Shown here in pieces: positions 25,550 through 36,822 of a stretch of DNA of 64,000 nt (the first letter of the stretch is position 1; every line of letters starts with the position of its first letter). Position numbers and translations under genes: made by a program. The notes under the pieces are model-generated. The model was not told the origin of the DNA and made no database searches. It saw nothing but the letters and a program-made list of their open reading frames with translations. The stretch is from Rhodococcus sp. IEGM 1381 (lineage in GTDB: Bacteria > Actinomycetota > Actinomycetes > Mycobacteriales > Mycobacteriaceae): assembly GCF_030056795.1 (NCBI RefSeq), contig NZ_JASHKQ010000011.1, forward strand, positions 1-64,000. Direction: 5' to 3'.

Positions 25550-26920
25550 GTGCCGAGACATCGTGGTCGTAGGCGTGGAAGAACGACAAGAATAGGGGTG
25601 TTGGCAGCAGCGGCTCTGGTCACGAGTCCGTTGCTCGCAGCGTGTGGTTAGTCCGACAGTTCGGTTCCGGTTCTGAGTTTCTACACCGCCGCAGACGGCG
25701 CAGAGCAGTACGCCGCTGCGGCACAGGTGTGTTCGGATGCTTCGAACGGTCGATACCGGGTGGAGCAGCGGACTCTTCCCAAGAGTGCGAACGACCAGCG
25801 TCTCCAGCTCGCGCGACGCCTCGCCGGAAACGACAAGACGCTGGATCTGATGACGCTCGACGTGGTGTGGACGGCCGAATTCGCCGAAGCCGGATGGGCA
25901 TTGCCCGTCCCCGAGGACCTGTCCGCGAAGCTGCGTGACGGCTCCACGCTCGAAGGTCCGCTGGCCACCGCGGAATGGCAGGACCAGCTGTACGCCGTTC
26001 CGCTCAACTCCAACACCCAGTTGCTCTGGTACCGGCCGGACGAGGTGCCCGACGGCACCCCGCCACAGACGTGGGACGAGTTGATCGACGAGGCCGAAGC
26101 CAACGCGGCCGCGGGTAAGCCCGCCCAGATCGGCGTCCAGGCCAAGCAGTACGAGGGCTTCATGGTCTGGTTCAACTCGCTGCTCGAGAGCGCGGGTGGT
26201 TCGGTCGTCGCAGAAGACGGAACGACGGTGACGCTCAACGACACTCCTGAGCACCGTGCCGCCACCGAGAAGGCTCTCGAGATCATCAAGCGGGTGGCCA
26301 CAGCCGACGGCCACGATCCGTCGGTCTCTCAGAGCGACGAGGCCACGGCCCGTCTCGGCATGGAATCGGGACGGATGGCCTTCCAGGTCAACTACCCGTT
26401 CGTGCTGCCCGGCCTGAAGGAGAACGCCATCGCCGGCGCTGTCTCGTTCCTGAACCTGGCCGGTGTGCCTGCCGATCAGCAGGACGCGAAGATCGCCGAG
26501 GTCTTCCGTAGCGCCCCGTACCCGGAGGTGAATCCGGGCGAGCCCGCCAAGGTCACCATCGGTGGGTTCAACATCGGCGTCGCCAAGACAACCCAGCATC
26601 AGGATCTCGCGTGGGAGGCCGTCGAGTGCCTCACCAACGAAGAGAACCAGCGCAACAACGCCGTCAACGGCGGTGTACCGCCGGTGCTGAAGTCGTTGTA
26701 CTCCGATCCTGAGTTCCAATCCGTCTATCCCGCATGGGAAGGGGTGCTCGGTTCCATCGAGTCGGCCGCGGTCCGACCCGTTTCGCCTGCCTACCAGAGC
26801 ATTTCGATCCTGCTGACCGATGCGCTCAACCCGCCGCAGAACATCGATCCGGTAGCCGACGTGGACAAGCTCGCAGATCTGGTCACCAAGGCCGTCAATT
26901 CCGAAGGGTTGATTCCATGA
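25550..26920 (+). pseudogene. lpqY: Trehalose-binding lipoprotein LpqY with an in-frame TAG after the lipobox
   Basis: The frame opens at GTG 25550 behind a GGAGG-type ribosome binding site. It runs through a basic start and hydrophobic helix to the lipobox L-L-A-A-C-G, then meets TAG at 25649-25651. The same frame continues without shift for 422 more codons with LpqY hallmarks: V-L-S-F-Y-T-A-A-D-G-A, N-D-Q-R-L-Q-L-A-R-R-L-A, T-L-D-V-V-W-T-A-E-F-A-E-A-G-W-A-L and K-V-T-I-G-G-F-N. Without the stop it would be a 456-codon lipoprotein that delivers trehalose to SugABC. Either the gene is dead, the stop is read through, or one base is wrong. Restart at GTG 25727 would give a protein lacking the export signal. 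Confidence 0.85.
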
Positions 26921-27840
26921 GCGAAACTCAGGACAGGCAGGGCGCCCTGAAGAACGTCTCCGACGGCAAGAAGGCCGAACGGCGGCTGGGGCTGTTGCTC
27001 ATCGCACCCGCGGCGATTCTGATGATCGCAGTCACCGGATATCCGATCATCTACGCCTTCTGGCTCAGCCTGCAGAAGTACAACCTCGCGTTCCCCGAGG
27101 ACCGTGAGTTCGTCGGCATCTCCAATTACGTCACGGTGCTCTCCGACGGGTACTGGTGGACGGCATTCAGCGTCACCGTAGGAATCACGATCATCTCGGT
27201 GATCATCGAGTTCATCCTCGGTCTTGCGGTGGCTCTGGTCATGCACCGCACCATCTTCGGTCGCGGACTGGTGCGAACCGTGGTGCTCATCCCGTACGGC
27301 ATCGTGACCGTCGCCGCCGCGTACAGCTGGTACTACGCGTGGACTCCCGGTACGGGATACCTCGCCAATCTGCTGCCCGACGGTAGTGCCCCGCTCACCG
27401 AGCAATTCCCGTCACTGGCGATCGTCGTGTTGGCCGAGGTATGGAAGACGACCCCGTTCATGGCGCTGCTGTTGCTGGCCGGTCTGGCTCTGGTGCCCGA
27501 CGATCTGCTCAAGGCGGCCGAGGTCGACGGAGCCGGTGGTTGGACCAGGCTGATGCGGATCACTATCCCGCTGATGAAGCCGGCCATTCTCGTCGCCGTG
27601 CTCTTCCGCACCCTCGACGCGTTCCGCATCTTCGACAACATCTACGTGCTCACCCGAGGTAGCAACGAAACCGGATCGGTCTCGATTCTCGGCTACGACA
27701 ACCTGTTCGGTGCGTTCAACCTCGGACTCGGGTCGGCGATCAGCATCCTGATCTTCTTCTGCGTCGCGATCATCGCGTTCGTGTTCATCAAGTTGTTCGG
27801 TGCCTCGGCACCGGGATCCGACGACGGAGGCCGCAAGTAA
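26917..27840 (+). CDS. sugA: Trehalose ABC importer permease SugA
   Basis: 307 aa MalF-type permease with six predicted helices (first at about 27-48, [15 protein letters not shown]). The coupling loop [17 protein letters not shown] is near residue 205. The ATG at 26917 overlaps the lpqY stop (ATGA), so translation is coupled to lpqY. A premature stop early in lpqY could therefore also lower sugA expression by polarity. Position equals Rv1236. Confidence 0.93.
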
Positions 27841-28673
27841 TGACCACTGTTACGCCTCGCAAGAAGGTCGGTTGGACGGTAGTCAACGTCCTCGTCCTGC
27901 TCTACGCGCTGGTTCCGCTGCTGTGGATCATCAGCCTCTCGTTCAAGTCGACGGCCACCATCGCCGACGGTAACTTCATCCCGCGCTCGTTCACACTGGA
28001 GAACTACAAGGGCATCTTCTCGACCAATCAGTTCACCTCGGCGCTGGTCAACTCCATCGGCATCGGACTGATCACGACGGTGATCGCCGTGGTGATCGGC
28101 ACGATGGCCGCGTATGCCGTCGCTCGCCTTGACTTCCCGGGAAAAAAGGCTCTCGTCGGTGCGGCGCTGCTGATCGCGATGTTCCCCCAGATCTCGCTGG
28201 TGACACCGCTGTTCGACATCTCCCGCTCGCTGGGACTGTTCGACACCTGGCCGGGACTGATCATTCCGTACATCACCTTCGCTTTGCCGTTGGCGATCTA
28301 CACCCTCTCGGCGTTCTTCCGCGAGATTCCGTGGGAGCTCGAAAAGGCAGCGAAGATGGACGGCGCGACGCCCGCACAGGCGTTCCGCAAGGTCATCGCC
28401 CCGCTGGCCGCCCCCGGCATCGTCACCGCCGCCATTCTGGTGTTCATCTTCGCCTGGAACGACCTGCTGCTCGCCATCTCGTTGACGGCAACGGAACGTT
28501 CGGTCACCGTCCCGGCGGCCATCTCGCAGTTCACCGGTAGCTCTCAGTTCGAGGAGCCCACGGGGTCGATCGCGGCGGCAGCAGTCGTCATCACGATCCC
28601 GATCATCATTTTTGTGCTCTTCTTCCAACGACGTATCGTGGCGGGCTTGACGTCCGGCGCAGTGAAGGGATAA
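27840..28673 (+). CDS. sugB: Trehalose ABC importer permease SugB
   Basis: 277 aa MalG-type permease, partner of SugA. The coupling loop [18 protein letters not shown] is near residue 180, after helices that include [13 protein letters not shown]. Its start shares one base with the sugA stop (TAATG). Together the two permeases form the membrane channel. Confidence 0.93.
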
Positions 28674-28678
28674 CCGTC

Positions 28679-29848
28679 ATGGCCGAAATAGTTCTCGACA
28701 AAGTCACCAAGCTCTACCCCGACGGCGCGGCTGCGGTCAGCGACGTCGACATCACCATCGCCGACGGCGAATTCATCATCCTCGTCGGGCCGTCCGGCTG
28801 CGGAAAGTCCACCACCCTCAACATGATCGCCGGACTCGAGGACATCTCCTCGGGCGAGCTGCGCATCGCGGGGGAGCGCGTCAACGAGCGGGCACCGAAG
28901 GATCGCGACATCGCGATGGTGTTCCAGTCGTACGCGCTGTACCCGCACATGACGGTGCGGCAGAACATCGCCTTCCCGCTCACCCTGGCCAAGCTCTCGA
29001 AGACCGAGATCAACACCAAGGTAGAAGAAGCTGCCAAGATCCTCGACCTCAGTCAGCACCTCGACCGCAAGCCGGCGAACCTCTCCGGTGGTCAGCGACA
29101 GCGAGTTGCCATGGGCCGCGCCATCGTTCGCACGCCCAAGGCCTTCCTGATGGACGAGCCGCTCTCCAACCTCGACGCGAAGCTGCGTGTCCAGACGCGC
29201 GCCGAGATCTCACGGCTGCAGAAGCGGCTCGGCACCACCACCGTCTATGTCACGCACGATCAGACCGAGGCCATGACTCTCGGCGATCGCGTCGTGGTGC
29301 TGCGCGGCGGGCTGGTGCAGCAGATCGGGTCCCCGCAGGAGCTCTACGACAAGCCGCGAAACCTGTTCGTGGGCGGCTTCATCGGATCGCCCTCGATGAA
29401 TTTCGTTCCCGGACAGCTCACCTCGAACGGTGTGTCGACTGCGCTCGGTGAAATCGACATCCCGCTCGAGCGGATGGATGCGATCAAGGCCAAGAACCCG
29501 GGTCGCGAGGTGGTCGTCGGCATCCGCCCCGAGCACTTCGAGGACGCGGCACTGATCGACGGGTATCAGAAGATGAGCGGTGCCACCTTCACCGCCACCG
29601 TCGACGTGCTCGAGTCGATGGGCAGCGACAAGTACGTCTACTTCACGTTGAAGGGTGCCAAGGTCGAATCCAGCGAGCTGCAGGAGCTCGCGGCCGATGC
29701 GGGTATCGCCGATCTCGGTGGCGCACAGGTGGTTGCACGTCTGGCGGCCGAGTCCAAGGCCGCCGAGGGCGGTCAGGTGGAACTGTGGTTCGACCCGGCG
29801 AAGATCTCGGTGTTCGACCAGGCCTCGGGTGCCAATCTGACGCTGTAG
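28679..29848 (+). CDS. sugC: Trehalose ABC importer ATPase SugC
   Basis: 389 aa MalK/UgpC-type ATPase. Walker [10 protein letters not shown] near residue 38, Q-loop [10 protein letters not shown] near residue 82, signature L-S-G-G-Q-R-Q-R near residue 135, Walker [12 protein letters not shown] near residue 158. A C-terminal TOBE-like regulatory domain (about 240-389) is present. It is 5 bp after sugB. The ATPase and both permeases look intact although lpqY is interrupted. Confidence 0.95.
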
Positions 29849-34839: not shown

Positions 34840-35928
34840 CTAGAGCCAGTTGTTCTTGTGGAACGTGCGCCACAGGCCGATGCACACGCACAGGACGACC
34901 CCGACCATCAGGTGGTAGCCGTAGGTCCAGTGCAACTCGGGCATGTTGTCGAAATTCATCCCGTAGATTCCCGCGACCATCGTCGGGACAGCCGCGATGG
35001 CCACCCACGACGAGATCTTGCGCATGTCCAGGTTCTGCTGCATGGTGACCCGGGCCAATGCGGCGTCGACCAGCGAACTGAGTACCTCGTCGTATTCGGA
35101 GATCCGCTCGGCGACGGTGGTGTGGTGGTCCTGTACGTCGCGCAGATACCGCCGTACGGCCTTCGGGACGCTCGGCTCCTGCACCAGACGCGCAAGAGGG
35201 GTCGACAGCGGCGTCACCGACCGGCGCAGCTCGACGACCTCTCGCTTGAGCAGGTAGATGTTCTCGATGGGCACGTGGTGGTGCGGGGAGAACACTTCCT
35301 CTTCCATTCCGTCGACGTCCCGCTCGATCGACTCGGTCACCGCCAGATACTCGTCGACGACGTGGTCGGCCACAGCGTGCAGCACCGCGGACGGCCCGAG
35401 TGAGAGCTGTTCCGGGTTCGCTTCGAGGCGCTGCCGAACGCCGGCCAACCCAGAATGTTCCCCGTGCCGGACGGTGATGACGAAGTCGCTGCCGACCATC
35501 ACCATGATCTCGCCGCTCTCGACGATCTCGTTGGCGGTGGTCACCGACTCGTGCTCGACGTACTTCACCGTGCGCAGCACCAGGAACGCGACGTCGTCGT
35601 AGCGTTCGAGTTTCGGACGTTGGTGTGCGTGCACGGTGTCCTCGACCATCAATTCGTGCAGTCCGTAGCACTGCGCGATCGCGCTCATCTGATGGTCGTC
35701 GGGCGCATGCAGGCCGACCCACACGAACCCCTCGCCGCGCGCACGTACCTCCGCAATCGCCGAGGTGTGGGTGAATCTGCCGGGCAATCGGGAGCCGTCG
35801 ACGTACACCGCGCAGTCGACGATCGCGCGGGCCGTGGGCACCGGAATTCTCGGGCCCGGATCGGTTGCGGCCTTGGGTCCCCGTCGATGCAGTGACGGTA
35901 ACGACGGTCGAGGTGGAAGGGACGGCAT
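34840..35928 (-). CDS. corA: CorA-type magnesium/divalent metal transporter
   Basis: 362 aa from ATG 35928; longer starts up to 36009 would overlap the divergent PHP gene. The C-terminal pair of helices holds the signature G-I-Y-G-M-N-F-D-N-M-P-E-L near residue 325, the G-M-N selectivity filter of CorA pentamers. A long acidic and helical cytoplasmic domain precedes it. It imports Mg2+ or Co2+. Position matches Rv1239c, though the mdh neighbour of M. tuberculosis is absent here. Confidence 0.92.
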   Translation of the reverse strand: MPSLPPRPSLPSLHRRGPKAATDPGPRIPVPTARAIVDCAVYVDGSRLPGRFTHTSAIAEVRARGEGFVWVGLHAPDDHQMSAIAQCYGLHELMVEDTVHAHQRPKLERYDDVAFLVLRTVKYVEHESVTTANEIVESGEIMVMVGSDFVITVRHGEHSGLAGVRQRLEANPEQLSLGPSAVLHAVADHVVDEYLAVTESIERDVDGMEEEVFSPHHHVPIENIYLLKREVVELRRSVTPLSTPLARLVQEPSVPKAVRRYLRDVQDHHTTVAERISEYDEVLSSLVDAALARVTMQQNLDMRKISSWVAIAAVPTMVAGIYGMNFDNMPELHWTYGYHLMVGVVLCVCIGLWRTFHKNNWL

Positions 35929-35985
35929 GGCGGGCAATCGTACGCCAGCAAAACGACGAGACGGCGAGCCTGGAACACTGTCGAG

Positions 35986-36822
35986 GTGCTCATCGATCTT
36001 CATACCCACTCGACGGCGTCAGACGGCACCGACAGCCCGGCCGAGCTGGTCCACGCGGCGTCGGCGGCGGGACTGTCGGTAGTGGCGCTGACAGACCACG
36101 ACACCACGTCGGGCTGGGACGAAGCGGCCGCGGCCGTTCCTCCCGGTCTGACGCTCGTGCGCGGTATGGAACTCTCGTGCACCGGACGCGGCGAGGACGG
36201 CGAACCGGTTCCTGTGCACCTGCTCGCGTACCTCTTCGACCCCGAGAACGAAGCGTTCGCGGCCGAGCGCGCGCGTCTACGCGGCGAACGGGTGACGAGG
36301 TTGCGAGCCATCGCCGAGAACATGGCAGCCGACGGTCTGCCGATCGATCCCGACGCAGTGCTGGCCTCGGCCGGTGCCGCAGCCGGACGTCCCCATCTCG
36401 GCCGTGCGCTGATCGACGCCGGATACGTCCCGGACATGAACGCCGCGTTCGCCGGTCCGTTGGCGACCAGCGGCAAGTACTACGTGGAGAAGGTGGACAC
36501 TCCCCTCGAGGCCGCGATACAGATGATCGCGGCAGCCGGCGGGGTGAGTGTGCTCGCGCATGCTCGGGCCCGCGCGCGCGGACGCATCCTCGATCTGGAC
36601 CACATTCGAGAACTGACGCCGTTGGGGCTCGGCGGAGTAGAGGTGCATCACATGGATCATTCGCACGATGACACTGTGGTGATGGCCGATCTTGCCGCGG
36701 AATTGGACCTGATCGTCACGGGCTCCTCGGATTACCACGGGACCAACAAGACGGTGAAACTCGGCGAATACACCACTGCCCCGGACCAATACGATCGAAT
36801 AGTTGCGGCGGCTCGCCCATGA
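35986..36822 (+). CDS. PHP-domain phosphoesterase (TrpH/YciV-like)
   Basis: 278 aa. The N-terminal metal motif L-I-D-L-H-T-H-S-T-A-S-D-G is at residues 2-14 and A-L-T-D-H-D-T near residue 37. V-S-V-L-A-H-A-R-A and G-S-S-D-Y-H-G later complete the PHP metal site. Homologues dephosphorylate nucleotides or short RNAs; the exact substrate is not visible. GTG start at 35986. It overlaps the MarC gene by 4 bp. Confidence 0.87.
   Translation: MLIDLHTHSTASDGTDSPAELVHAASAAGLSVVALTDHDTTSGWDEAAAAVPPGLTLVRGMELSCTGRGEDGEPVPVHLLAYLFDPENEAFAAERARLRGERVTRLRAIAENMAADGLPIDPDAVLASAGAAAGRPHLGRALIDAGYVPDMNAAFAGPLATSGKYYVEKVDTPLEAAIQMIAAAGGVSVLAHARARARGRILDLDHIRELTPLGLGGVEVHHMDHSHDDTVVMADLAAELDLIVTGSSDYHGTNKTVKLGEYTTAPDQYDRIVAAARP

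What the first reader, a model, noticed from the sequence alone, without database searches (positions are those of the whole stretch)
25649..25651. Single in-frame TAG just after the LpqY lipobox
The frame from GTG 25550 gives a signal peptide and lipobox L-L-A-A-C-G, then TAG. The very next codons continue in the same frame with LpqY sequence for 422 codons. sugA, sugB and sugC downstream look intact. Either trehalose recycling has been lost recently, the amber codon is read through, or there is a base error. Placement one codon after the lipid-anchored Cys-Gly would give a 33-residue secreted peptide if termination is real.
Basis: partly seen in the sequence, partly recalled or inferred. Interest (0 to 1): 0.85.

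Follow-up and report, generated by a model that had tools for sequence, protein, structure and literature searches.

The report
Recent stop codon in sugar-transporter gene
One Rhodococcus-type bacterium carries a single stop codon early in the gene for a trehalose-transporter lipoprotein that nearly all sampled relatives keep whole; this is most likely a very recent loss mutation or a base error, and is an ordinary finding rather than a new way of reading the code.

Summary
TAG at 25649-25651 interrupts an otherwise open lpqY frame: 33 codons with a lipobox before it, 422 codons of LpqY after it. The host belongs to the Rhodococcus/Rhodococcoides fascians clade. Of 36 other genomes of the genus, 0 have a stop inside lpqY; one, G022, has a frameshift elsewhere in the gene. 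So the stop is private to this genome, not a conserved recoding site. Since the split from three close sisters, the 422 codons after the stop gained 12 private synonymous and 0 private nonsynonymous changes. If the gene is dead, it died within roughly the last 8-19% of that branch. No CUA tRNA was found, and in-frame stops in 528 kb of this genome are of mixed type, so nothing points to amber suppression. lpqY and sugA overlap by ATGA, so a real stop should also hurt sugA translation (inference). OtsA and TreY are intact, so trehalose can still be made. Best reading: a very recent nonsense mutation in a dispensable importer (0.72). Base error (0.17) and useful read-through (0.08) stay open. 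Interest is low.

The parts
25550..25648 (+). lpqY first piece: GTG start, signal peptide and lipobox LLAACG (33 codons)
   Evidence: shared with close sisters
25649..25651 (+). in-frame TAG, private to this genome
   Evidence: 0 of 36 other genus genomes have a stop inside lpqY
25652..26920 (+). rest of lpqY (422 codons plus TGA), solute-binding protein domain, PF01547 E 7.3e-32
25655..25754 (+). strongly folding stretch from the fourth base after the TAG (-46.3 kcal/mol, z -3.4); the same fold is predicted in close sisters that have no stop
26917..27840 (+). sugA permease; its ATG overlaps the lpqY TGA (ATGA)
27840..28673 (+). sugB permease
28679..29848 (+). sugC ATP-binding subunit

Best explanation
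A nonsense mutation arose very recently in the lineage of this one isolate, or during its cultivation, and truncates LpqY at codon 34, directly after the lipobox. The ribosome stops, so no full-length substrate-binding lipoprotein is made (inferred). Because lpqY and sugA overlap by ATGA, sugA translation probably falls as well (inferred). The cell tolerates this because trehalose can still be made: OtsA and TreY are encoded without stops (shown). The importer would then be inactive while every downstream gene still looks intact, because too little time has passed for decay. Shown: the stop, its absence from the other sampled genomes of the genus, strong constraint on the downstream codons up to nearly the present, and a separate lpqY frameshift in another species. 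Inferred: termination, loss of uptake, polarity.
For:: of 37 genus genomes (this one included), 35 have an uninterrupted lpqY, this one has 1 TAG, and G022 is split over two frames; private changes against three agreeing sisters (G009, G014, G017) are 12 S/0 N in the 422-codon piece, 1 S/1 N in the 33-codon piece, sugA 6/3, sugB 5/0, sugC 18/1; 0 N limits the unconstrained share of the private branch to about 8-11% (19% if S is taken at its lower bound). G022 breaks mid-gene, with sugA, sugB and sugC essentially full length; of 269 G017 ORFs covered at 90% or more in 528 kb of this genome, 19 show an in-frame stop, in 13 of them only within the first 63 residues. Up to four besides lpqY have a constrained stretch of 30 codons or more before the stop, so lpqY is one of a handful. 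OtsA and TreY carry no stops. PMC7845637 (passages): a sugC deletion of M. smegmatis keeps viability in low glucose; otsA is synthetic lethal with treYZ or lpqY-sugABC in M. tuberculosis. PMC7918605 (abstract and first part of Results): in-frame stops in bacterial genes are widespread and tend to persist for short times, like population polymorphisms.
Against: There is no sign of decay: 12 S and 0 N after the stop, and no relaxed constraint visible in sugB or sugC. The event must therefore be very young, which is also how an error or working read-through would look. Loss has costs in mycobacteria: sugC mutants are more sensitive to oxidants, and lpqY or sugC mutants of M. tuberculosis are attenuated (PMC7845637, passages). 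The assembly is a draft of 43 contigs, with no reads at hand and no second strain of the species.
Confidence: 0.72

Rival explanations
1. Base error in the draft assembly: the isolate carries a sense codon and an intact, working lpqY.
For: Downstream constraint looks undisturbed (12 S/0 N); 0 of 36 other genus genomes have a stop in the gene; draft in 43 contigs.
Against: Of 51 G017 ORFs checked in this 64 kb, only two show stops in the window, and in the other one (CorA) the stops lie in a stretch that does not look coding, so errors are not piled up. The local density of private changes is unremarkable: 4 in 103 bp, where about 14% of windows of that size hold 4 or more. Nothing at the site itself could be tested.
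Confidence: 0.17
2. The UAG is read through often enough to supply useful LpqY, lowering its dose; constraint downstream then persists because the protein is still made.
For: 12 private synonymous against 0 nonsynonymous changes after the stop. A strong fold starts at the fourth base after the TAG (z -3.4, 0 of 200 shuffles as good). At least one other possible gene has an in-frame TAG with some constraint before and after it (C11:1007931, 41 codons before). PMC7918605 (abstract and part of Results) argues that many bacterial in-frame stops are read through; a review puts read-through in bacteria near 1e-2 (PMC6030554, passages).
Against: The stop occurs in 1 of 37 genus genomes. No CUA tRNA among 46 tRNAs named by ARAGORN; the 47th Rfam hit, cut by a contig end, shows a TAA anticodon by eye. 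The 22 in-frame stops in 528 kb are 13 TGA, 5 TAG, 4 TAA, many of them outside real genes. The same fold is predicted in close sisters without a stop, and 14 of 420 windows in the operon fold as well or better.
Confidence: 0.08
3. Functional truncation: the 33-codon frame makes a secreted peptide, or an internal start after the stop makes a useful cytoplasmic protein.
For: Both open frames exist; the listed ORF of the second piece starts at GTG 25727.
Against: The first piece is the ancestral signal peptide, leaving Cys-Gly after processing (inference). A product from 25727 would lack the signal peptide, the lipid anchor and the first 25 residues of the post-stop piece. Relatives show one continuous gene.
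Confidence: 0.03

Closest known systems
LpqY-SugABC trehalose importer of mycobacteria (7ape; PMC7949145, passages)
   Same: Gene order lpqY-sugA-sugB-sugC, full-length similarity (E 3.2e-141), lipobox; equivalents of Q59, D80, N134, E241, G334 and R404 kept
   Different: lpqY interrupted by TAG; equivalents of N25, E26, W259, L335 and L371 read D, G, Y, F and V, in the other rhodococcal sequences too
In-frame stops in bacterial genes as surveyed in PMC7918605 (abstract and first part of Results)
   Same: Isolated stop in a gene whose downstream codons remain constrained; short-lived, like a polymorphism
   Different: No second genome here shares the stop, which that study required in order to reduce artefacts
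Programmed stop-codon read-through or amber suppression (recalled as a kind)
   Same: Open, constrained frame continues after the stop
   Different: Stop not shared, no CUA tRNA found, stop types mixed elsewhere in the genome

Membership tests
LpqY (binding protein of LpqY-SugABC) | Full-length similarity to solved LpqY | tested here: met
   7ape, query 1-422 aligned, E 3.2e-141
LpqY (binding protein of LpqY-SugABC) | Signal peptide with lipobox | tested here: met
   LLAACG, judged by eye, shared with close sisters; no signal-peptide program was run
LpqY (binding protein of LpqY-SugABC) | Operon with sugA, sugB and sugC | tested here: met
LpqY (binding protein of LpqY-SugABC) | Trehalose-contacting residues | tested here: inconclusive
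   equivalents of Q59, D80, N134, E241, G334, R404 kept; N25, E26, W259, L335, L371 and E256 changed; residues taken from passages of PMC7949145
LpqY (binding protein of LpqY-SugABC) | Full-length product made | not testable with these tools
   needs proteomics or immunoblot
Pseudogene | Frame interrupted relative to relatives | tested here: met
   1 TAG here; 0 of 36 others with an inside stop (one, G022, with a frameshift)
Pseudogene | Relaxed selection after the interruption | tested here: not met
   12 S/0 N private; so only a very recent loss fits
Programmed read-through | Stop conserved among relatives | tested here: not met
   1 of 37; of 105 family genomes with a match (201 searched), only this one has a TAG inside; G066 has one TAA
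Programmed read-through | Suppressor tRNA for UAG | tested here: not met
   draft genome, so absence is not absolute
Programmed read-through | Stimulatory downstream structure tied to the stop | tested here: inconclusive
   strong fold, but shared with stop-less sisters

The most novel reading that the evidence does not exclude
The UAG right after the lipobox is read through by near-cognate tRNAs, helped by the strong RNA fold that starts at the fourth base downstream, giving a low, possibly stress-dependent dose of LpqY and, by ATGA coupling, of SugA. The stop would then act as an expression throttle on sugar recycling that selection has accepted.
Probability: 0.06. Interest if true: 0.55.

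Novelty: new member of a known kind. Interest (0 to 1): 0.17.

Why it matters
If the stop is real, the isolate is a natural lpqY-null outside the mycobacteria and would help show whether this importer is dispensable in mycolate-bearing environmental bacteria; a second genome of the genus with a broken lpqY points the same way, unless that too is an error. If it is a base error, the gene was simply misread. The finding does not by itself change the picture of translation or of trehalose recycling.

Tried and rejected
A conserved recoding site was rejected: 0 of 36 other genus genomes have a stop in lpqY.

Genome-wide amber suppression was found unsupported: no CUA tRNA and mixed in-frame stop types. 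Speaking for suppression, five of the 22 stops listed are TAG, one of them (C11:1007931) in a stretch with some constraint on both sides; I did not identify that gene.

A second pseudogene in the window (CorA gene, 34843-36789) was considered and rejected. Its two stops lie in or next to stretches with N/S of 19/3 and 8/1 against G017, which do not look coding, while the 392 codons after them are constrained, and the 389-codon frame alone carries the whole CorA domain.

Clustering of private changes at the leader as a sign of decay or bad sequence was rejected: 4 in 103 bp is common here.

A fold specific to the stop was rejected: the same predicted fold occurs in close sisters.

lpqY being more break-prone than sugA, sugB and sugC (2 of 37 against 0 inside stops in 37 each) was noted, but the counts are too small. 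For sugB, G018 aligns only from residue 92 to 277; I take this to be a contig end but did not check.

A length difference near the sugA start was looked at and seems to be ordinary variation of the SugA N-terminus across the genus.

Papers: searches 'Rhodococcus, LpqY' (7 of 8 listed) and 'Rhodococcus, trehalose, ABC transporter, pseudogene' (10 listed) gave listings only. No listed title or abstract opening reported lpqY loss in Rhodococcus; I opened none of them. The searches led to the four papers of which I saw abstract, part of a section, or passages: PMC7949145, PMC7845637, PMC7918605, PMC6030554.

Rows left out: of 33 loci found, the site comparison used 31 (L005-L035); L036 and L037, distant, were left out. 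One search folded 15 loci. One search aligned L005-L028 only.

Full report
What is there. The window carries TAG at 25649-25651, in the frame that begins at GTG 25550. The first piece is 33 codons and ends in the lipobox LLAACG. The second piece, 25652-26920, is 422 codons plus TGA. The second piece is LpqY: it matches 7ape over its whole length (E 3.2e-141) and PF01547 (E 7.3e-32). sugA, sugB and sugC follow, open and with permease or ATPase domains. The window is the first 64 kb of contig C7 (128,177 bases) of a 5.5 Mb draft in 43 contigs. The closest named relatives are Rhodococcus and Rhodococcoides strains of the fascians clade. Over the window, three sisters align at 93-95% identity (G009, G014, G017). 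No second genome of the same species was available.

Is the stop shared? I used the natural, uninterrupted protein of a sister as query against the genus. Of 37 genomes, 35 have an uninterrupted frame, this one has 1 TAG, and G022 is split over two frames. None of the 36 others has a stop inside the match. In the named collection, 31 of 33 loci were compared at the site: none has a stop between lipobox and mature domain, and the 19 with the same spacing (L005-L022, L028) have a sense codon at this very place; the more distant ones differ in spacing. Some of these are the same genomes as. In a wider family sample, 105 of 201 genomes had a match at E 1e-80 or better. Besides this TAG, one genome (G066) shows one inside stop, a TAA, and G022 is again split; a few matches are partial and were not examined. 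sugA, sugB and sugC show no inside stop in 37 of 37; the sugB match of G018 is partial (residues 92-277).

How old is it? I counted substitutions private to the window where three sisters agree. The 422-codon piece has 12 synonymous and 0 nonsynonymous private changes; the 33-codon piece has 1 and 1; sugA 6 and 3; sugB 5 and 0; sugC 18 and 1. With about three nonsynonymous sites per synonymous site, zero nonsynonymous changes bounds the unconstrained part of the private branch at about 8-11%, or 19% if the true synonymous count is at its lower limit. This assumes no recombination and a simple site count. So the stop is very recent, or is an error, or does not abolish the product. The first piece is too short to test (against G017 N3/S2, ratio 0.61, over 40 codons that include 7 before the GTG). 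The private changes near the leader (25548, 25583, 25588, the stop) are not a remarkable cluster: about 14% of windows of that size hold four or more.

Read-through. Of 47 tRNA matches, 46 were named by ARAGORN and none has a CUA anticodon; the last is cut by a contig end and its loop shows TAA by eye. Of 269 G017 ORFs covered at 90% or more in 528 kb of this genome, 19 show an in-frame stop and 2 a frame change. The 22 stops are 13 TGA, 5 TAG and 4 TAA. In 13 of the 19 ORFs they lie only within the first 63 residues, where the mechanical ORF may begin before the true start. Besides lpqY, four have 30 codons or more before the stop with an N/S ratio below 0.3: a TGA near C11:961125 (116 codons before, ratio 0.28), a TAG near C11:1007931 (41 codons, 0.20), a TGA near C11:1074123 (32 codons, 0.15) and a TGA near C11:1033901 (146 codons, 0.29, badly aligned at the stop). 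I did not identify these genes. In the reverse comparison 11 of 261 ORFs have stops and 2 a frame change, so background interruption is of the same order. The 100 bases from 25655 fold well (-46.3 kcal/mol, z -3.4, 0 of 200 shuffles). Of 15 loci folded, the same dot-bracket is predicted in L006, L010 and L012 and a close variant in L005, which have no stop; the more distant L013, L014, L016, L018, L024, L025 and L029 fold otherwise; 14 of 420 operon windows fold as well or better. So the fold was there before the stop. It may raise leakiness but is no evidence of design.

Consequence if real. The listed ORF after the stop starts at GTG 25727 and would give a protein without signal peptide or lipid anchor. 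The lpqY stop overlaps the sugA start in the window and in 24 of 24 aligned loci L005-L028 (22 ATGA, 2 GTGA), so a stop at codon 34 is expected to weaken sugA translation too (inference). A match to OtsA's family (C11:1433376-1434767) and TreY (C4:112531-114870) carry no stops, so trehalose synthesis should remain. In M. smegmatis a sugC deletion keeps viability in low glucose, and otsA is reported synthetic lethal with treYZ or lpqY-sugABC in M. tuberculosis (PMC7845637, passages). The same passages report costs: greater sensitivity to oxidants, and attenuation of M. tuberculosis mutants. Loss is therefore plausible and survivable, though not free. G022 has an independent mid-gene lpqY frameshift with sugA, sugB and sugC essentially full length; it too could be real or an error.

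Comparison. PMC7918605 (abstract and first part of Results) reports that in-frame stops within bacterial genes are widespread, tend to be short-lived like population polymorphisms, and are on average under some constraint; its authors focused on stops shared by two or more species to reduce artefacts. This case is of that general kind but is a single-genome stop. Carbohydrate transport and metabolism was among the most frequent categories there.

Verdict. The best reading is a very recent nonsense mutation that disables an importer this organism can probably do without; base error is the main rival; useful read-through is possible but unsupported; a secreted 33-residue peptide is unlikely. The finding is ordinary. 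On checking, 'sense codon in 36 of 36' was narrowed to 'no stop in 36 of 36', and the other interrupted ORFs are now listed in full; the odds did not need to change.

Noticed in passing
window 26393 (residue Y248 of the post-stop piece), also 25697: LpqY of this group has Tyr where Mtr LpqY has Trp259, whose change to Ala abolished trehalose binding (PMC7949145, passages), and Gly where it has Glu26. Tyr is in 26 of 26 rhodococcal-type sequences (window, L005-L028, L034; L025 is Antrihabitans) and Trp in 5 of 5 mycobacterial loci L029-L033. Sugar preference may differ from mycobacteria.
   Followed up: partly
L133 2440-2470 (G022:C1 about 5133440-5133470): An independent frameshift in the middle of lpqY in another species of the genus, single-contig genome, sugA, sugB and sugC essentially full length.
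   Followed up: partly
G000:C11 about 961125, 1007931, 1074123: Other ORFs with an in-frame stop here against G017 and apparent constraint on both sides; not identified.
   Followed up: no
window 26917-26980: The SugA N-terminus right after the ATGA overlap varies in length across the genus; the window has a shorter form than its closest sisters.
   Followed up: partly
window 25655-25754: Unusually stable predicted RNA fold at the start of mature LpqY, with the same structure in several close sisters; reason unknown, and it may be chance of codon composition.
   Followed up: partly
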